Assembly (NCBI GenBank): GCA_021324615.1
Contig: JAJPIT010000127.1
Location: 1-33,729 of the forward strand
Direction: 5' to 3'
DNA length: 33,729 nt
Source: Terriglobia bacterium
GTDB lineage: Bacteria; Acidobacteriota; Terriglobia; Bryobacterales; Bryobacteraceae
Shown here: in pieces, positions 8,717 through 32,851 of the stretch
How positions within the stretch are numbered: position 1 is the stretch's first letter
Layout: the number at the start of each line of letters is the position of its first letter
Position numbers and translations under genes: made by a program
The notes under the pieces: model-generated
Told to the model about the DNA's origin: nothing
The model's input: the letters and a program-made list of their open reading frames with translations, nothing else
Database searches by the model: none

Positions 8717-9649
8717 CTACTCGATCAGTCCCAGTTTTCGCAGCGTGGCAGCGGGTTCTGCGCCGCCATTTTCATCGAAATGCGACACGGGACCCGTTTC
8801 CCGTCCGTTCTCCAGCGCAACTCCATAGGGCGGATCGCCGAAGGGGAAAATTTTCTTTAACGTCTCCAGATCGAGCGAGGGTTGCATCTTCAACCCGGTA
8901 TCGTGAATGAAGGAAGCGGCGAACTGCGGCATCGAGGTGGGGATTCCGATGATCCGCACGTCGCTCCGCCAGTGCAGCTTGGCCATGCCTCGCGCCGCCG
9001 CGTCGCAATGGCTGCAATTGGGGTCGTAAAAGAACAGGAAAATGGTTCCATGTTGCAGCGAATACGGCTTGCCATCCACGGTGATCGAGTCGGGAGCTTT
9101 CGCGCCCGTCTGCCGCGAAAGCGCGAAGGCGTAGCTGCCTCCCGCGCACAGCGCGATGACCGCGGTGACCGCCGCCGCGCGCTTCCACGAGTCCACCGGC
9201 TTTGCGAACCATCCCGCCAGAACCGCCGCCAGCAGCATCCCCGCGTCTTCGGCGAAGAACGCCGGGCCCACGGCCCGCTTCACCCACGGAAAACAACTGC
9301 AATCGCGCCCGATCAGCGCCGAATAGTTATATCCGATATAAATCATGAACACGACCAGCAGCAGCGAGGCCAGTAGCGATCCCCATCGGCGGAAGCGCGG
9401 GATCAACACCAGAACTCCCGCCGCCGTTTCGCCGATGGCCAGCGCCAAGGTGGACGGCATACTGAACTGGTAAGGCATCAGAAGCTGCTCGAGCATTCTG
9501 GACCAGCCGAACGGATCGCTCATCTTCCACAGGCCGGCGCTGAGGAACAGCAGCGCCGTGACCAGCGCGCCGGCCCAGCTCACCGCGCTCTTCCAGGCCG
9601 GCATCTCCAGCGGGCGATGCCTCGCCGCGGCCATTGTCGTCGCATCCAT
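8717..9649 (-). CDS. MauE/DoxX-type membrane domain fused to a thioredoxin-like domain
   Basis: 310 residues. The N-terminal half has four predicted membrane helices (about 22-42, 66-83, 90-110, 133-148) with a GRDCSCF motif in a loop (Cys117 and Cys119), as in MauE/DoxX-like proteins. A fifth helix (about 157-177) leads to a thioredoxin-like domain with the redox pair CSHC at 212-215, preceded by TIFLFFYDPN. The fold suggests a membrane thiol-disulfide relay that oxidises or reduces exported proteins. The loop CSC may pass electrons to the periplasmic CxxC; this is inference. Start ATG at 9649; only 42 bp separate it from the divergent oxidoreductase gene. Confidence 0.85.
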   Translation of the reverse strand: MDATTMAAARHRPLEMPAWKSAVSWAGALVTALLFLSAGLWKMSDPFGWSRMLEQLLMPYQFSMPSTLALAIGETAAGVLVLIPRFRRWGSLLASLLLVVFMIYIGYNYSALIGRDCSCFPWVKRAVGPAFFAEDAGMLLAAVLAGWFAKPVDSWKRAAAVTAVIALCAGGSYAFALSRQTGAKAPDSITVDGKPYSLQHGTIFLFFYDPNCSHCDAAARGMAKLHWRSDVRIIGIPTSMPQFAASFIHDTGLKMQPSLDLETLKKIFPFGDPPYGVALENGRETGPVSHFDENGGAEPAATLRKLGLIE

Positions 9650-25343: not shown

Positions 25344-25435
25344 TTATGACCTACTATAACGCCGCCGCACGAGGAAGATCGGCCAGACGCGGCCTTCCAT
25401 CCTCATAATGTGCTAAACTCCCGACCGAGGGTCCT

Positions 25436-25957
25436 ATGAAAAGAATCACTTTCCTGACCATGCTGGGCGCCGCCGCGCTTCTGGCGCAGCCGCCGCAGCA
25501 GCACACGCACTTGAAAGTCGGCGACATGGCTCCCGACTTCACACTTCCCGATCAAAACAACCATCCCGTGAAGCTTTCCGATTTTCGCGGCAAGAAGGCC
25601 GTGGTTTTAGCCTTCTTCCCGGCCGCGTTCACCGCCGGCTGAACGCGCGAACTTACCGCCTACCAGTCTGGTATCGGCAAATTTAAAGAGGTAGACACGC
25701 AGGTGCTGGCCATCAGTGGCGATTTCATAGCCACCCTCAATCACTGGTCAAAGGAGCTGAACGCCGACTTTCCGATGCTGTCCGATTACAAACGCGAGGT
25801 CATGAAACAGTATGGCGTTTTGGGCGAAAAATCATACTTGGCCAACCGGACCACGTTTGTGATCGATCAGGACGGAAAGATCGTGTCTATTGAAGAAGGC
25901 AACTCCGCGATCGACCCCACGGGGGCGGTCACGGCTTGTAGCCGATTGAAACATTAG
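25436..25957 (+). CDS. exported peroxiredoxin, probable selenoprotein (in-frame TGA = Sec69)
   Basis: 173 residues if the TGA at 25640-25642 is read through. Signal peptide about 1-18 (MKRITFLTMLGAAALLAQ), then the AhpC/TSA fold: VGDMAPDFTLPDQ and FRGKKAVVLAFFPAAFTAG. The TGA then sits exactly where the peroxidatic Cys belongs in the P-x-x-x-T-x-x-C motif, and the frame continues TRELTAYQ with normal family sequence for 104 more codons (WSKELNADFPMLSD, TTFVIDQDGKIV). A candidate resolving Cys is at 168. A SECIS-like hairpin follows the TGA at the right distance. It would reduce peroxides in the periplasm. Alternatives are a TGC/TGT-to-TGA mutation or a sequencing error; the intact downstream frame argues against decay. 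Confidence 0.87.
25640..25678 (+). promoter_or_regulatory. putative bacterial SECIS element
   Basis: After the TGA at 25640-25642, a hairpin forms from GCC (25658-25660) plus TACCA (25661-25665), loop GTC (25666-25668), TGGTA (25669-25673), a two-base bulge TC, and GGC (25676-25678). The apical loop begins with G and lies 24 bases after the TGA, within the range usual for bacterial SECIS elements that recruit SelB. The hairpin lies inside the coding region, as in known bacterial selenoproteins. Confidence 0.65.
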
Positions 25958-25987
25958 GGGTTAGGAGTTTAACTCTTCGATCCCGAG

Positions 25988-26022
25988 AGCCCCGGCGGCC
26001 CCTGCCGGGGCTTTGTTTTTTT
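25988..26022 (+). terminator. intrinsic terminator after the peroxiredoxin
   Basis: Perfect 9-bp stem AGCCCCGGC (25988-25996) against GCCGGGGCT (26004-26012), 7-base loop, followed by a T-rich run to 26022. It closes the peroxiredoxin transcript and isolates the downstream sorting cassette. Confidence 0.9.
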
Positions 26023-26263: not shown

Positions 26264-26917
26264 ATGAGAATTGCACTTGGTTTGAGCCTGTTAGCCGGTT
26301 CCCTCACGCTTTCGGCGGGCACTATTTGTCCCGCCGGTTCGGGGGCAAACCCGTTTCCTTACTCGCCGGACCCGACCGGGACCGGTTGCAATGCGGTCAT
26401 CACCATCGCCGCGAATGGATCCGTCAGTGTGGCGGTCACCGATTCGACGCCCTATGAATTCGGCGAGGATGTTCTTATCGGTGTCAAGAACAATTCGTCG
26501 ACTCCGGTGAGTTCGATCGCCTTGAACGGCGGCTCAGGCGGATATATTTTCGATCTTGACGGCGACGGAATCTGCATATACACGTTCGTGGGAAGCAGCT
26601 ACTGTTCCGCGAGCCAGCAGTCCGGGACCGATCCCCAGGATTACTATGGCCCGACGTCGACGTTTACGAACATTAACCAGACCACGCTCAATTCCGGGAC
26701 GGTGAACTTCAATCCTCCGATCCCGCCGCATGGAGGCACGACGTATTTCAGTTTGGAGGGCGTTCCGTCGGCGAACCTTAGCGCGACGGTCACGGGCACC
26801 GGATCCAGCGTGAGCACCGCTCCCACGCTGGGCGAATGGGGTATGATTCTGCTGGGCGCGCTGCTGATCGGTTGCGCCGCTTTCCTTACGGGAAGAAAGG
26901 CGAATCAGACGGTCTGA
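26264..26917 (+). CDS. secreted IPTL-CTERM (exosortase H substrate) protein
   Basis: 217 residues from the ATG at 26264; an in-frame extension upstream reads through the promoter and is rejected. Signal peptide about 1-18. The ectodomain is Gly/Ser/Thr-rich with several Cys residues and blocks such as PYSPDPTGTGCN, FDLDGDGICIYTF and GTTYFSLEG. The C-terminus is a sorting signal: APTLGEWG (186-193), a membrane helix (194-208) and a basic cluster RK. This matches the IPTLxxWG tag recognised by exosortase H, whose gene follows 13 bp downstream. The protein is probably cleaved or processed at the tag and delivered to the surface. Ectodomain function unknown. Confidence 0.85.
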   Translation: MRIALGLSLLAGSLTLSAGTICPAGSGANPFPYSPDPTGTGCNAVITIAANGSVSVAVTDSTPYEFGEDVLIGVKNNSSTPVSSIALNGGSGGYIFDLDGDGICIYTFVGSSYCSASQQSGTDPQDYYGPTSTFTNINQTTLNSGTVNFNPPIPPHGGTTYFSLEGVPSANLSATVTGTGSSVSTAPTLGEWGMILLGALLIGCAAFLTGRKANQTV

Positions 26918-26930
26918 AGCCGGCGTTTTC

Positions 26931-27449
26931 ATGAGTCGTACGACGGCGAAGTTCCTGCTGGTCTTTATCTGTAGTTTTCTGGCCGGATTTGGATTGCTGA
27001 TCACGCCCGCCGGCCGCCCGCTGATGGTGAAGTACTCGGCGGCCGTAGTGAGACTTTCGGCCGCGCTGATCTCCACCTTCGGGGGAACGGCCAAGGTCGA
27101 TGGCGATCAGGGCGTGGTTTTGCTCCATCCAACGCATCAGTTGGGCGTGGCGATGATGGATGGATGCAACGGCATCAACGTGACGGTGCTGTTGTGCTCG
27201 GCGGTGCTGGCGTTTCCGGCCTCCTGGACCGCACGAGCCAAGGGCGTGTTGACCGGCATCCTTGCCATCCAATCCATCAATGTCGTAAGATTCATCAGCT
27301 TGTTTTACATCCTGCAATACAGCAAGCCGCTATTCGATTTCGCGCACCACTACTTGTGGGAGAGCCTGATTATGCTGGACGCGCTGGTGGTTTTCTGGCT
27401 ATGGGCGCAGCGTGTTTTGCGGGCGCCCGCCGTCAAGAGTGCCGCGTAA
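26931..27449 (+). CDS. xrtH: exosortase H (IPTLxxWG-CTERM-specific)
   Basis: 172 residues, mostly membrane helices. The exosortase catalytic triad is visible: Cys79 in DGCNGINV, Arg120 in QSINVVRF and His139 or His140 in FAHHYLWES. The small size and the IPTL-type substrate next door fit XrtH rather than the larger EpsH/XrtA enzymes. It is an inner-membrane transpeptidase-like protease that processes the C-terminal sorting tag. It lies between its substrate and a membrane partner in one operon. Confidence 0.88.
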   Translation: MSRTTAKFLLVFICSFLAGFGLLITPAGRPLMVKYSAAVVRLSAALISTFGGTAKVDGDQGVVLLHPTHQLGVAMMDGCNGINVTVLLCSAVLAFPASWTARAKGVLTGILAIQSINVVRFISLFYILQYSKPLFDFAHHYLWESLIMLDALVVFWLWAQRVLRAPAVKSAA

Positions 27450-28086
27450 TCCGTATCTTCCGTTTCTGATTCGCGGATCGGCGGCCATGATCGCCATGCT
27501 GGCAATCTGGTGGCTGTGGTTGCGGCCGCCGTTGCTGTTTCTACTACGCGGCGTCGAGCCGTTCGCGTTGATGCTGGCCAATGGCGGCGAGGCTTCCATC
27601 ACCGCCGGAGATTCGGGAGATTGGAATTTTCGCGTTCCCGTGGAAGACGTCCACCGGCAGGACGGCAAGCTGGTGAAGATTCACAGCGTCGAATTCACCA
27701 TTCCCCTTGAAGATGTGACGCTTTTTACGTTTAGCTGGCCGGTGTTCTGGGCGGTGATGATCGCCGCGCCCGGTCTGAAGGCGAACTGGCGGGCGCTGCT
27801 GGCCGGCACCGCTCTGCTGGCGGTGATCGAGCCGGTTCTTCTGCTGATCTTTGTGCAAATCGACACGCGGGCGGTTCTGACGCAATGGCACCCCGAAAAT
27901 AGAGCGGGACTGGCGGCGTGGCTGCGCGAGTACGGCACGTATTTGAACAACAACGTAATGCCGTTTTTGACGCCGATCGCGCTGGCGGTTGCGCTGCATC
28001 CACGCCTGCGTTCGCTGATCGCCGCTTCCAGGCCTGGCGAGCGCGCGAAAGCTGTTTCCACGGTATCGCGAAAAAGCCGCCGCTGA
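27439..28086 (+). CDS. exosortase H-associated membrane protein
   Basis: 215 residues from the GTG at 27439 (MPRNPYLPFLIRG), overlapping the xrtH stop by 11 bp; an alternative GTG at 27412 adds nine residues. Helices at about 15-36, 100-115, 122-146 and 175-190. A soluble segment (about 48-95) separates the first helix from the rest, containing WNFRVPVEDVHRQDGK. Such genes accompany XrtH elsewhere; the role (partner, chaperone or substrate handler) is not known. Basic C-terminus. Confidence 0.8.
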   Translation: MPRNPYLPFLIRGSAAMIAMLAIWWLWLRPPLLFLLRGVEPFALMLANGGEASITAGDSGDWNFRVPVEDVHRQDGKLVKIHSVEFTIPLEDVTLFTFSWPVFWAVMIAAPGLKANWRALLAGTALLAVIEPVLLLIFVQIDTRAVLTQWHPENRAGLAAWLREYGTYLNNNVMPFLTPIALAVALHPRLRSLIAASRPGERAKAVSTVSRKSRR

Positions 28087-28256: not shown

Positions 28257-28845
28257 CCGGGCCGGATGAAGCTCAGCTTTACGCATGCCGGAGTGCCCAC
28301 GCATCCAGCGCTTTGCCTGCGAACTCGCTTCCGTTATCGGTGGTGATCGACTCCGGCGCAGGGCGGCCCTGTTCCATCACGCGCTCCAGCTCAGCCACGA
28401 CTTTGTTGCCCGTCATCGAACGCTCCGCTTCCAGCGCAATGCACTTGCGCGTGAACTGATCGATCACGCTCAGCACCCGAAAGTTCCGTCCGTCTTCGGT
28501 CCGCTCCTGAATGAAATCCATCGACCAGCGTTCGTTCGGACGTACTACGACGCTCAGCGGAACACGCGCACGGCTCGCCCGCTTCTTGCGCTGTTTGGTG
28601 CGCACCATCAAACCTTCCTCGCTGTAGATCCGATACACCCGCCTGGCATTGACCTTCCATCCTTCGCGCTTCAACAGCACCGTCAGCCTGCGATAGCCAT
28701 ACCGCACCCGCGTCGCGGCCAGCTCCTTCAGCCGCGAGCGCAACGCAACCTGCGGATCGCGACATGGCCGATACCGCAGTGTTCCTCTCGGCACTTTCAT
28801 CAGCCCCGCCGCACGACGCTCGCTGACTCGGAACGAGTCGTGCAC
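28257..28845 (-). pseudogene. IS3-family transposase OrfB, frameshifted and truncated
   Basis: The frame ends at 28279 (188 residues shown from an internal ATG). It has the HTH_21-like region (YGYRRLTVLLKREGWKVN) and the rve integrase core with the first Asp in RWSMDFIQE and the second in ITTDNGSEF. The catalytic Glu is lost. At the end, ...WALRHA-stop continues as VKLSFIRPG in the next frame, so one base has been lost, and the rest of the integrase is gone. It is entered from orfA by a probable -1 frameshift at A-AAA-AAG (28884-28890). Not functional. Confidence 0.85.
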
Positions 28846-28877
28846 CCAATGCGCGGCTTCTCGCCGGCGGCGTGGCT

Positions 28878-29123
28878 TTATAGCTTTTTTGAGATCACCT
28901 CTTGCAGGATGTGTTTGTCCAGCGCCAAATCCGCCACCAGCCGTTTGAGCTTGTCGTTTTCCTCGCGGAGCTGACGCAACTCGCGCAACTCGCTCACGCC
29001 GATGCCGGAGTAGAACGTCGCCGTGCTAATGCCCATCCGCCGGCATATCTCCTTGGTCGTCTCCCCACCTTCCTGCGCAGTGATGGCCGCGACGATCTGT
29101 TCCTTGGTGTGTCCCTTTGGCAT
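28878..29123 (-). CDS. IS3-family transposase OrfA
   Basis: 81 residues, intact HTH_Tnp_1 protein: EQIVAAITAQEGGETTKEICRRMGISTATFY is the DNA-binding helix-turn-helix, followed by a leucine-zipper-like coiled coil (LRELRQLREENDKLKRLVADL). A ribosome site, AAGGAGG, precedes the ATG. The 3' end holds the slippery AAAAAAG run used by IS3 elements to make the OrfAB fusion. Since OrfB is broken, only this DNA-binding part can be made. Confidence 0.85.
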   Translation of the reverse strand: MPKGHTKEQIVAAITAQEGGETTKEICRRMGISTATFYSGIGVSELRELRQLREENDKLKRLVADLALDKHILQEVISKKL

Positions 29124-29340: not shown

Positions 29341-29743
29341 TTCCTGGGTGTTCTTTTGGGTGCCAGCTTGCGGCGAACTGCCGCCTTCCGTTGGTCGGCC
29401 CAGAGCATTCGCACAAGGGCGCGACCGAGATTGCGCCCTGCTCATCGTCCGCGATGAGTCGCACCGGCTATCCCTTGGCGGGTTGCTCCAGGAGCAGAGC
29501 TTACCTTCGTTTCGCCGAGTGTATCCAGCATGCTAGGAAAAGGTCTTGCCGGTCGAGGAATTTTCAGCGAACGGCGAACTGCGTCTTAACTGTTTGTCTC
29601 AGCCGAGGGGGCAAGCGCAATTCTCTAACCCTCTCATCACGAGGCGTGGCACGCCCTTCTAATGACAGGGCCAAGCATGGCCAAGACGAACCCTGGACAA
29701 GCTCGCCTAAATGTTGTATTCATCTAACGCTGGAGGATTCACG
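29341..29743. other. remnant DNA upstream of the TonB receptor
   Basis: About 400 bp with short overlapping frames but no recognisable protein; probably leftover mobile-element sequence plus the receptor promoter. The only clear signal is the GGAGG ribosome site at 29732-29736. No promoter stood out. Confidence 0.5.
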
Positions 29744-32700
29744 ATGCGCCTTCGATATACCGCCTTCACGCTGCTGCTGGCATCCGCCGCCTGGGCGCAA
29801 ACCTTTCGCGGCGGCTTGAACGGATCGGTGACGGACACGACCGGCGCGGCGATTCCGCAAGCCACTGTACGCCTGGATAACGCGGCGACCGGCTTCTCCC
29901 GCACCACTTTCACCACCAGCGCGGGCGAGTACAGTTTCCCCGATCTTCCCACCGGCATCTACACGCTCACGGCCTCGGCCGGCGGATTTGAAACCAAGAA
30001 AGTCGAGAACATCGAAATCGCGGTTACCAAAACCACCGCCATCAACGTGCAGTTGGGTGTCGCGCAGCAGCAGCAGACGGTGGAGGTTTCGGCAGCCGCG
30101 GCGAACCTGGACACCACCACCAGCGATCTTTCCGCGGTGGTGAACGACAAAACGGTGCAGGATCTGCCGATCAACGGGCGGGATTTCCGGCAGATGATCA
30201 AGCTGGCGCCCGGAGTGACCTCGTCGGCCACCACGCCTTCGGTCAACGGAACGCGCTTCTCGTCGAACAACTACCAGGTGGACGGCGCCGACAACAACGA
30301 CGTGATGTATGGTTATACCTCGCAGAACCAACCTGGTGTGGCGGGGATTCCCGGCGGGCTGCTTCCGGTGGACGCTATCGATCAGTTTTCGGTGGAGACC
30401 AATGCCGGGGCCGACGTCGGCCGGAACGCGGGATCAAACGTCAATATGGTGATCAAGTCCGGCACCAATGATTTTCACGGCACCGTGTATTTTTTCAACC
30501 GCAATGAGGATTTGGCGGCGCCTTCGCCGCTGTTGCCGCCGGGCAGCCGCCCGCAGGAGATCCGGAACAACCAGCCGGGATTTTCCTTGGGCGGTCCGAT
30601 CCGGAGAAACAAACTATTCTTTTTCCTGGCCGGGGAGATTCAGCTCGCCATCGCCGGCGAATCGATTTCGGACACATCGCCGTCGGCTGCCTGGGTCGCC
30701 GCGGGCGAGGCGGAACTGGCCAAGTACAACGTCCCCGTAAATCCGGTGTCGCTGAATTTGCTAAGCATCTGGCCCGCCGCCAGCCGCACTGGCCCGGCGA
30801 CGCCGAACAATTACCTGGCCAACGCCCTGGATACGTATAACAGTTTTAACGGTCTGGGCAAGATCGATTATCGCTTCAACGAGAAGCACTCTCTTTCGGT
30901 TCACTATTTCGGAACCGGCGGCACGCAAGTCGCCGATGTCGGTTCCCATTACAAGGATTTCTTCCAGACCGCGCCCATGCACGTGCATAACATCTCCGTC
31001 GTGGAGAACGCGATCCTGTCTCCGCGGCTGCTCAACCAAGTCACCCTCGCCACGAATTACTTCATGCAGACCTTTCAGGACAACAATCTCGCCTTTAACG
31101 CCGCCGCGCTGGGGCTCAACACCGGATCGAATATCATCGGCGCTCCGACCATCACCATCTCCGGCTTCGACTACGTCGGCGCCACCCAGCCCGCCGGTCG
31201 CACCGACACGACCGGCCACGTCACCGACAATCTCTCCTACAGCATCGGCAAGCATCAGTTCAAAATTGGCGGCGAATACCGCCGGGCGCAGCTCGATGTG
31301 GCGTACTTCAACAACGCCCGCGGCACTTTCACCTTCGACGGGTCGCGCGGACCGTGGGCTAACGATCCGGCCGCCTCGGCCGACCTGCAGTCGATCTCCG
31401 ACTTTCTGGCCGGCATGCCCAGCAACGCCAGCGGCGCCACCATCCAGCGCGGATTGCCGGAACCGGTTTGGCAGCAGAACACCGCCGATTGGTGGGTGCA
31501 AGATAACTATCAGGTGCTGCCGCAGCTCAACATCAATTTTGGCGTCCGCTATGACTACATCGGAGTGCTTCACGACAGCGCCAACAACCTTGCGAACTTC
31601 ATTCCGGGCCAGGGATTTGTCACAGGCCAGCTCTATCAGAGGAATCCCTACGATTTCGCGCCACGTTTCGGTTTTGCCTATGCGCCGAAATGGGTTTCCC
31701 GGCTGGTCATCCGCGGCGGCGTGGGGCTGTTCTATGACGTGACGCCGGTCGCCGCGGTGGCTTTCACGGGGTCGTCAAACGGCGCCGCAAACGGCATCGC
31801 GTACAACCCCGGCGGCCCCAATCCGGTGTATACACTCTCGGCGCAAAACGTGGTCTTCCAGCCGGACGTGCCTGTATTCGGAAACACAGTCGCCAAGCCG
31901 CCGTTCGGCGCGGCGTCCGTGAATCCGCAATTTAAGACGCCCTATACGCTGAACTACGATTTGAATGTCCAGGTGAAACTCACCAACTCGACCCTGTTGC
32001 AGACCGGATATGTGGGAAACGTAAGCCGGCACCTGGAAACGCTCCTGGACATCAACCAGCCGATCAACGGCGTTCGGCCGCTGGCCACGGAATATCCGGC
32101 GCTGGCGGCCATCAATCAGTTGAACACCAACGGCAATTCGAACTACAACTCGCTTCAGACGTCGCTTCACCAGCAGCTTTCCCGGGGATTCACCGCCAAC
32201 GTCAACTACACCTGGAGCCACGCCATCGACGACGATTCCAGCTACACCACGCCGATGAACAGCTACAATCTGGCGCTGGACAAAGGCAACAGCACCTTCG
32301 ATGACCGTCACATCCTGACCGGCTTCTTCAGTTACGACGCGCCGCAACTGGCGCATTTCGCTCCGCGCCTGACCAAGGGCTGGGTGCTCAATGCGCTCAT
32401 GACCTTCACCTCGGGATTGCCGATCAACGTTACCACCGGCAGAAACACCGATGGGACGGGCGAAAATAAGGATCGCGCGAATCTGGTCGGCGGCGTCGAT
32501 CCGTACGCCGGCTTCGCCCCCCTCCCCGGAACCAGAGCCCGTCTCTATTTGAACAGGGCTGCATTCGCCGTGCCCGCCAACGGCACGTACGGCAACCTCG
32601 GCCGCGACGCGCTTTACGGTCCTCGTTTCGGTTCTATCGATTTCTCGATCTTCAAACGGACGCCCATCACCGAACGCATCAACACCGAGCTTCGCGCCGA

Positions 32701-32851
32701 GATTCTGAACCTCTTCAATGAGGTCAACTGGCGTGCTCCCAGCACTTCGTTATCCAGCGGTACGTTTGGGGAGGTCGTTCAGACGCGCTGTACGGCGCTT
32801 CCGCTCCCGGGCTGGGCTTTGGCGAGCCGCGTAACGTGCAACTGGCCCTGA
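29744..32851 (+). CDS. Oar-like TonB-dependent receptor with C-terminal frameshift
   Basis: 1035 residues as read, ATG at 29744 with GGAGG seven bases upstream. Signal peptide about 1-18 (MRLRYTAFTLLLASAAWAQ), a carboxypeptidase-regulatory-like domain (about 20-110, GSVTDTTGAAIPQATV), plug domain (about 120-260, with INGRDFRQMIKLAPGVT and YQVDGADNND), then a large outer-membrane barrel. Acidobacteria carry many such receptors for polymer or chelate uptake. The current frame ends in RVTCNWP, which is not a barrel end. The -1 frame between about 32778 and the TGA at 32863-32865 instead reads DALYGASAPGLGFGEPRN then VQLALKIIF, the normal beta-signal. So one or more bases were lost or gained near 32765-32790. 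Confidence 0.9.
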   Translation: MRLRYTAFTLLLASAAWAQTFRGGLNGSVTDTTGAAIPQATVRLDNAATGFSRTTFTTSAGEYSFPDLPTGIYTLTASAGGFETKKVENIEIAVTKTTAINVQLGVAQQQQTVEVSAAAANLDTTTSDLSAVVNDKTVQDLPINGRDFRQMIKLAPGVTSSATTPSVNGTRFSSNNYQVDGADNNDVMYGYTSQNQPGVAGIPGGLLPVDAIDQFSVETNAGADVGRNAGSNVNMVIKSGTNDFHGTVYFFNRNEDLAAPSPLLPPGSRPQEIRNNQPGFSLGGPIRRNKLFFFLAGEIQLAIAGESISDTSPSAAWVAAGEAELAKYNVPVNPVSLNLLSIWPAASRTGPATPNNYLANALDTYNSFNGLGKIDYRFNEKHSLSVHYFGTGGTQVADVGSHYKDFFQTAPMHVHNISVVENAILSPRLLNQVTLATNYFMQTFQDNNLAFNAAALGLNTGSNIIGAPTITISGFDYVGATQPAGRTDTTGHVTDNLSYSIGKHQFKIGGEYRRAQLDVAYFNNARGTFTFDGSRGPWANDPAASADLQSISDFLAGMPSNASGATIQRGLPEPVWQQNTADWWVQDNYQVLPQLNINFGVRYDYIGVLHDSANNLANFIPGQGFVTGQLYQRNPYDFAPRFGFAYAPKWVSRLVIRGGVGLFYDVTPVAAVAFTGSSNGAANGIAYNPGGPNPVYTLSAQNVVFQPDVPVFGNTVAKPPFGAASVNPQFKTPYTLNYDLNVQVKLTNSTLLQTGYVGNVSRHLETLLDINQPINGVRPLATEYPALAAINQLNTNGNSNYNSLQTSLHQQLSRGFTANVNYTWSHAIDDDSSYTTPMNSYNLALDKGNSTFDDRHILTGFFSYDAPQLAHFAPRLTKGWVLNALMTFTSGLPINVTTGRNTDGTGENKDRANLVGGVDPYAGFAPLPGTRARLYLNRAAFAVPANGTYGNLGRDALYGPRFGSIDFSIFKRTPITERINTELRAEILNLFNEVNWRAPSTSLSSGTFGEVVQTRCTALPLPGWALASRVTCNWP

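What the first reader, a model, noticed from the sequence alone, without database searches (positions are those of the whole stretch)
25436..25957. Exported peroxiredoxin with selenocysteine at the peroxidatic position
The TGA at 25640-25642 falls exactly at the catalytic Cys of the P-x-x-x-T-x-x-C motif, and the peroxiredoxin frame continues intact for 104 codons. The protein also has a signal peptide, so it would be a periplasmic selenoprotein. An annotation pipeline would split it into two short fragments or call it a pseudogene.
Basis: partly seen in the sequence, partly recalled or inferred. Interest (0 to 1): 0.85.

Follow-up and report, generated by a model that had tools for sequence, protein, structure and literature searches.

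The report
Exported selenocysteine peroxiredoxin of soil Acidobacteria
A soil bacterium carries a gene for a probably exported antioxidant enzyme whose key atom is selenium, easily missed because its selenium codon looks like a stop; relatives of the gene occur in its family and in other families of the phylum.

Summary
Confirmed. TGA 25640-25642 lies at the peroxidatic position (P62-x-x-x-T66-x-x-U69) of an intact 173-aa AhpC/TSA peroxiredoxin with a signal-peptide-like start. The same genome (Bryobacteraceae-like draft, Acidobacteriota) holds tRNA-Sec, SelA, SelB, SelD and two further TGA-bearing genes (selD, an fdhA-like gene). Among 150 distinct family orthologues the codon is TGA in 122, TGC/TGT in 28, nothing else. 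A hairpin (UACCA-GNN-UGGUA type) stands at a fixed place after TGA in 119 of 122 Sec genes and 1 of 28 Cys genes (apparently a fossil), against 1.2 of 122 after codon resampling; compensatory changes support it. So this is a selected selenoprotein gene, not a pseudogene or error.

The fold is closest to AhpE. Sec-containing peroxiredoxins are known; an exported, AhpE-like branch with a C-terminal Cys is a new variant. A Planococcus plasmid relative with TGA and the C-terminal Cys, but no signal peptide, is already annotated across the TGA. Sec insertion, activity, reductant and location are inferred, not shown.

The parts
25436..25957 (+). Selenocysteine peroxiredoxin gene with signal-peptide-like start (173 aa, TAG stop)
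25427..25431 (+). GAGGG, Shine-Dalgarno-like stretch 4 nt before the ATG (by eye)
25436..25486 (+). Signal peptide (MKRITFLTMLGAAALLA, cleavage before Q18 inferred)
   Evidence: sequence; A17 126 of 150 and Q18 136 of 150 in orthologues; crude rule
25619..25621 (+). P62 of the active-site motif
   Evidence: P in 117 of 122 family Sec copies, V in 18 and S in 1 of 19 other-family copies
25631..25633 (+). T66 of the active-site motif
   Evidence: T 113, S 9 of 122 Sec copies
25640..25642 (+). TGA read as selenocysteine 69, peroxidatic residue
25661..25673 (+). SECIS-type hairpin UACCA-GUC-UGGUA, loop begins with G
25847..25849 (+). R138, candidate catalytic Arg, invariant
   Evidence: 150 of 150 and 19 of 19
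25937..25939 (+). C168, invariant C-terminal Cys, candidate resolving residue
   Evidence: 150 of 150 and 19 of 19 in other families
25986..26014 (+). Terminator-like hairpin with T run

Best explanation
The gene encodes an exported peroxiredoxin whose peroxidatic residue is selenocysteine. SelA, SelD and tRNA-Sec make Sec-tRNA; SelB binds the hairpin 19-31 nt after the UGA and delivers Sec instead of termination (genes and hairpin shown; insertion inferred). The signal peptide sends the protein to the periplasm (inferred). There the selenolate of U69, helped by T66 and R138, reduces a peroxide and becomes a selenenic acid; C168 in the C-terminal helix attacks it to form a selenenylsulfide, which an exported thioredoxin-like protein reduces (inferred from conservation and from how peroxiredoxins work).
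For: TGA or Cys codon only at the site, 122 and 28 of 150. Hairpin at a fixed place in 119 of 122 Sec copies and 1 of 28 Cys copies, 1.2 of 122 on average (maximum 5) after codon resampling. Double changes that keep pairs: AU/UA, CG/UA, AU/GC; loop G in 141 of 141. Residues under the hairpin are kept in Sec but not Cys forms: G79 118 of 122 against 13 of 28 (related sequences, so the test is only a guide). tRNA-Sec, SelA, SelB, SelD in this genome; 118 of 120 family genomes listed with a TGA copy show tRNA-Sec and/or SelB. C168 in 169 of 169, and not in the 6 Cys peroxiredoxins put in the tree as outgroup. AF2 model, pLDDT 90.6: U69 near the start of a helix, C168 in the last helix; nearest solved fold AhpE, TM 0.89-0.92.
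Against: No experiment. Folded alone, the window's hairpin region is no more stable than shuffles (z -0.10). A loose hairpin rule (any place +16 to +37) fires in 122 of 122 Sec copies but also in 17 of 28 Cys copies; only the fixed place separates them. 3 of 122 family copies and 3 of 19 other-family copies (pair counts) lack the 4-pair hairpin there. 5 of 122 family Sec copies lack P62, and the 19 other-family copies have V (18) or S (1). No conserved neighbour names the reductant: the commonest cluster lies near 21 of 169 genes. The U69-C168 distance could not be measured. 24 of 169 N-termini fail my signal-peptide rule, 16 match a Tat-like pattern, 1 a lipobox. At E 1e-25, 317 of 396 genomes of the phylum sample have no match.
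Confidence: 0.85

Rival explanations
1. Pseudogene or assembly error: the TGA is a true nonsense change or a miscalled TGC/TGT.
For: The window comes from a draft assembly in 127 contigs.
Against: 122 of 150 distinct orthologues share TGA at this codon with the frame open beyond it; the 97%-identical locus L040 also has it; hairpin under selection.
Confidence: 0.01
2. UGA is read as Cys or Trp by a changed code or a suppressor, without selenium.
For: The site is Cys in 28 of 150 orthologues.
Against: tRNA-Sec, SelA, SelB and SelD present; SECIS-type hairpin tied to TGA; 14 of 122 TGA-bearing genes also end with TGA as stop; of 22 genomes with Cys copies only, 6 show neither tRNA-Sec nor SelB, against 2 of 120 with TGA copies.
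Confidence: 0.02
3. A selenoprotein, but 1-Cys type: C168 is structural or binds a partner, and an external thiol reduces the selenenic acid directly, as in AhpE.
For: Closest fold is AhpE, whose entries 1xvw and 1xxu are titled 1-Cys peroxiredoxin; the distance of C168 to U69 is not known.
Against: C168 is invariant in 169 of 169 Sec and Cys forms, which I would not expect of a merely structural lone Cys in an exported protein.
Confidence: 0.25
4. Not a peroxide scavenger but a thiol oxidase, redox sensor or relay in the cell envelope.
For: Signal-peptide-like start; no operon partner found; P62 replaced by V or S in 19 of 19 other-family copies.
Against: P62, T66, U69 and R138 all kept in this protein; whole AhpC/TSA fold.
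Confidence: 0.12

Closest known systems
Bacterial Sec-containing peroxiredoxins (Prx, PF00578/COG1225, motif TxxU; PrxU of Eubacterium acidaminophilum)
   Same: Sec at the peroxidatic position of PxxxTxxU, AhpC/TSA domain (motif as given in passages of PMC13188914 and PMC9312934)
   Different: NCBIfam peroxi_PrxU scores 77 against a cut-off of 270; here a signal-peptide-like start and a C-terminal Cys. PrxU has a Cys three residues after Sec (recalled, from no call); here there is none.
AhpE subfamily (Mycobacterium tuberculosis AhpE, 4x0x, 5id2)
   Same: Best fold matches, TM 0.89-0.92, 38-39% identity; PxAF(T/S)xxC-type active site (passages of PMC5302317)
   Different: AhpE has Cys as peroxidatic residue; the passage gives a conserved Val/Ile before it, here Gly; here Sec, C168 and a signal-peptide-like start
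Planococcus lenghuensis plasmid redoxin WP_332309485.1 (L244)
   Same: In-frame TGA at the same site inside an annotated CDS; C-terminal ACENL matches ACSRL
   Different: No signal peptide by eye; 38% identical to the query
PrxQ/BCP (NF006960)
   Same: Best NCBIfam model by score, 93 bits
   Different: Below its cut-off of 140; no Cys five residues after the peroxidatic site, as the paralogues in L125 and L140 have

Membership tests
Peroxiredoxin (AhpC/TSA, PF00578) | Domain match over the gathering score | tested here: met
   132.2 bits, cut-off 26
Peroxiredoxin (AhpC/TSA, PF00578) | P-x-x-x-T/S-x-x-C/U motif and catalytic Arg | tested here: met
   P62, T66, U69, R138 in this protein; in the 19 other-family relatives P62 is V (18) or S (1)
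Bacterial selenoprotein | In-frame TGA aligned with Cys in homologues | tested here: met
   122 TGA, 28 Cys codons, of 150
Bacterial selenoprotein | SECIS hairpin just downstream, G at the start of the apical loop | tested here: met
   119 of 122 at a fixed place, loop G in 141 of 141; the G rule is recalled
Bacterial selenoprotein | selA, selB, selC, selD in the genome | tested here: met
Bacterial selenoprotein | Selenium in the purified protein | not testable with these tools
AhpE subfamily | AhpE fold | tested here: met
   TM 0.89-0.92
AhpE subfamily | Val/Ile directly before the peroxidatic residue | tested here: not met
   G68 in 150 of 150; signature from passages of PMC5302317
NCBIfam PrxU equivalog (NF040737) | Curated score cut-off of 270 | tested here: not met
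   77.3 bits
PrxQ/BCP (NF006960) | Curated score cut-off of 140 | tested here: not met
   93.1 bits
Exported protein | Signal peptide, cleavage, periplasmic location | tested here: inconclusive
   Signal-peptide-like N-termini, 145 of 169 by a crude rule; no predictor or experiment available

The most novel reading that the evidence does not exclude
Bryobacteraceae and several other Acidobacteriota families keep an exported selenoperoxidase of an AhpE-derived subfamily of its own, working by a selenenylsulfide between Sec69 and a C-terminal Cys; it may be a main reason why many of them keep the Sec machinery. In Bryobacteraceae Sec decoding may also use an upstream cis signal (GGU-GGU before UGA).
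Probability: 0.35. Interest if true: 0.65.

Novelty: new variant of a known kind. Interest (0 to 1): 0.52.

Why it matters
The papers that I searched say little on selenium use in soil Acidobacteria: a 2006 survey counts 4 selenoproteins (PMC1794560), deep-Sep lists 3 selenoprotein genes in one genome (PMC12013277), a 2026 review does not name the phylum (PMC13188914) (passages; searches). An exported selenoperoxidase kept by 122 of 150 orthologues in one family, and found in other families, would tie selenium supply to peroxide defence at the cell envelope of these bacteria. The Sec/Cys switches, one with a hairpin still standing beside a Cys codon, make gain and loss of Sec testable. A pipeline that reads TGA as stop would cut this gene in two.

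Tried and rejected
Single-sequence folding of the window's hairpin region gave no signal (z -0.10); a loose hairpin rule also fired in 17 of 28 Cys copies. Only position and comparison across genes separate Sec from Cys. Neighbourhood clustering found no partner near more than 21 of 169 genes, and none of the 18 clusters printed includes the window's own neighbours; flanks were a few kb and sometimes cut by contig ends. A promoter scan found none. PHROGs gave an unnamed family and a weak peroxiredoxin one. Of four plasmid relatives read, only L244 has TGA at the site. That Prx might be the only selenoprotein besides SelD was dropped: an fdhA-like gene (below the TIGR01591 cut-off) has one in-frame TGA in ...ENQARIUHSS, with a CCCCA-GUC-UGGGG hairpin; other selenoprotein families were not searched. 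A general upstream GGU-GGU-UGA rule was rejected: it holds in Bryobacteraceae (103 of 122 at -1) but in 1 of 19 other-family copies, and not in the window's own gene (GCC GGC TGA).

Rows dropped: of 165 matches, one search used 159 (150 bits or more), and 150 after identical DNA was removed. Matches that one search did not list were not fetched: the cross-table covers 142 of the 169 genomes with a match. In one search, 73 of 86 listed rows show one TGA, but only 19 besides the window's own were fetched and checked at the site. The tree rests on 142 columns with many open forks; 15 switches is the minimum on that tree, with 5 forced by starred branches.

Full report
What is there. The window lies in a 3.94 Mb draft genome in 127 contigs, 99.3% complete. 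Its closest named locus in genome contigs is a Terriglobia MAG, Centralia_MAG_187 (L040, 97% identity); other close loci are titled Bryobacterales, Bryobacteraceae or Acidobacteria. I infer a Bryobacteraceae-like member of the Acidobacteriota, and call the group code f1 of the genome search 'the family'. At 25436-25957 an ATG opens a frame that, with TGA as Sec, runs 173 residues to TAG. U69 stands at the peroxidatic site of P62-x-x-x-T66-x-x-U69. The read-through protein matches AhpC/TSA at 132 bits.

Is the TGA selected? In the family 169 of 237 genomes match at 1e-30. From and the fetched stretches, one search found 165 matches; 159 reached 150 bits, 150 after identical DNA was removed. The aligned codon is TGA in 122, TGC in 27, TGT in 1. 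The query carried Cys there, so the search did not favour TGA. Beyond the family, 79 of 396 genomes sampled over the phylum (the window's own included) match at 1e-25, 317 do not; the 61 best of 86 listed rows all show one in-frame TGA, and 73 of 86 overall. The 19 of these that I fetched all have TGA at the site.

Hairpin. Downstream of the TGA, at +19 to +31, Sec genes carry (U)ACCA-GNN-UGGU(A) or a paired variant. The four inner pairs with a G-first loop stand at that place in 119 of 122 Sec genes and 1 of 28 Cys genes. When the codons are resampled with the proteins kept, the mean is 1.2 of 122 and the maximum 5 in 300 trials. Pairs +20:+30, +21:+29 and +23:+27 show double changes that keep pairing; the other-family copies mostly use U-A at +21:+29 (16 of 19); the first loop base is G in 141 of 141. 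At codon 79 GGT is used in 114 of 122, against 8.5% of Gly codons elsewhere in the same genes. Against this: alone, the window's region folds no better than shuffles (z -0.10); a loose rule that lets the hairpin stand anywhere fires in 17 of 28 Cys copies too; and 3 of 19 other-family copies lack the hairpin at that place. The one Cys gene with the hairpin in place, L038, looks like a recent Sec-to-Cys switch.

Machinery. This genome has tRNA-Sec, SelA and SelB, and SelD, itself with a TGA. One search covers the 142 family genomes whose rows one search listed. Of 120 with a TGA copy, 85 show tRNA-Sec and SelB, 11 tRNA-Sec only, 22 SelB only, 2 neither; one of those two, G148, has SelD, the other, G029, is 55% complete. 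Of 22 with Cys copies only, 14 show both, 2 SelB only, 6 neither. tRNA-Sec absences rest on E 1e-11; a laxer look is blurred by tRNA-Ser, which scores up to 51 bits in this genome. SelD supports the reading: 22 of 30 loci read have TGA, 13 of the 22 with CCAAA-GGU-UUUGG at the same distance and the others with variants, by eye. An fdhA-like gene with TGA makes three selenoprotein genes found; I did not search other families.

Evolution. On a tree of 175 proteins, with the Sec column and the hairpin columns masked, Sec and Cys need at least 15 changes, 5 of them forced by well-supported branches. The root is not inferred by the program; many Sec lineages with scattered Cys tips suggest mainly Sec-to-Cys, which is my inference. 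Six listed genomes carry both forms; in two of them the copies are neighbours (L069, L091).

Mechanism. The AF2 model (pLDDT 90.6) is closest to AhpE (TM 0.89-0.92). U69 is near the start of a helix; C168 lies in the last one. C168 is invariant in 150 family and 19 other-family copies, Sec or Cys, and absent from the 6 Cys peroxiredoxins put in the tree as outgroup. I take it as the resolving residue, likely but not shown; I had no coordinates to measure a distance. The signal peptide is judged by eye and by a crude rule (145 of 169 pass). The partner reductant is unknown and no conserved neighbour was found.

What is known. Sec peroxiredoxins of the TxxU type are an established family (passages of PMC13188914, PMC9312934, PMC5029168). 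A 2006 survey counted 3 selenoprotein families and 4 selenoproteins in Acidobacteria, and deep-Sep lists 3 selenoprotein genes in Occallatibacter riparius, without naming them in the passages I saw (PMC1794560, PMC12013277); a relative of this gene may be among them. A Planococcus plasmid gene with TGA at this site and the same C-terminal Cys is annotated through the TGA. My searches (listings, and passages where read) showed no paper on an exported Sec peroxiredoxin or on this gene in Acidobacteria; subscription papers are mostly not held.

Verdict. The observation and the main interpretation stand. It is a new variant of a known kind: with a signal-peptide-like start, AhpE-like, with an invariant C-terminal Cys, and present in several Acidobacteriota families.

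Noticed in passing
L056 1531-1533 and 29 further selD loci: selD itself carries TGA in 22 of 30 loci read; the codon before the TGA is GGT in 22 of 22, but GGT in 1 of 8 Cys forms.
   Followed up: yes
L228: fdhA-like gene with in-frame TGA (ENQARIUHSS) and hairpin CCCCA-GUC-UGGGG, the same loop as in the peroxiredoxin gene.
   Followed up: partly
codons 67 and 68 of the orthologues: In Bryobacteraceae the two codons before TGA are GGT in 106 and 103 of 122, against 8.5% of Gly codons elsewhere in these genes; unexplained. The window's own gene is an exception.
   Followed up: partly
L038: Cys copy that still carries the hairpin in place: probable fossil of a recent Sec-to-Cys change.
   Followed up: partly
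L179-L197: Outside the family the active-site Pro is Val in 18 of 19 and Ser in 1.
   Followed up: no
window 26264-28083: IPTL-CTERM protein, exosortase H and an XrtH-associated-like membrane protein (33 bits, cut-off 35) side by side.
   Followed up: no
window 28279-29120: Two ORFs on the minus strand with transposase parts (rve, HTH_Tnp_1), insertion-sequence-like.
   Followed up: no
window 8717-9646: MauE/DoxX-like membrane protein with a CxxC stretch (PNCSHC), a possible envelope thiol donor, 16 kb away.
   Followed up: no
window 29711-32848: Large outer-membrane beta-barrel protein with a carboxypeptidase-regulatory domain.
   Followed up: no
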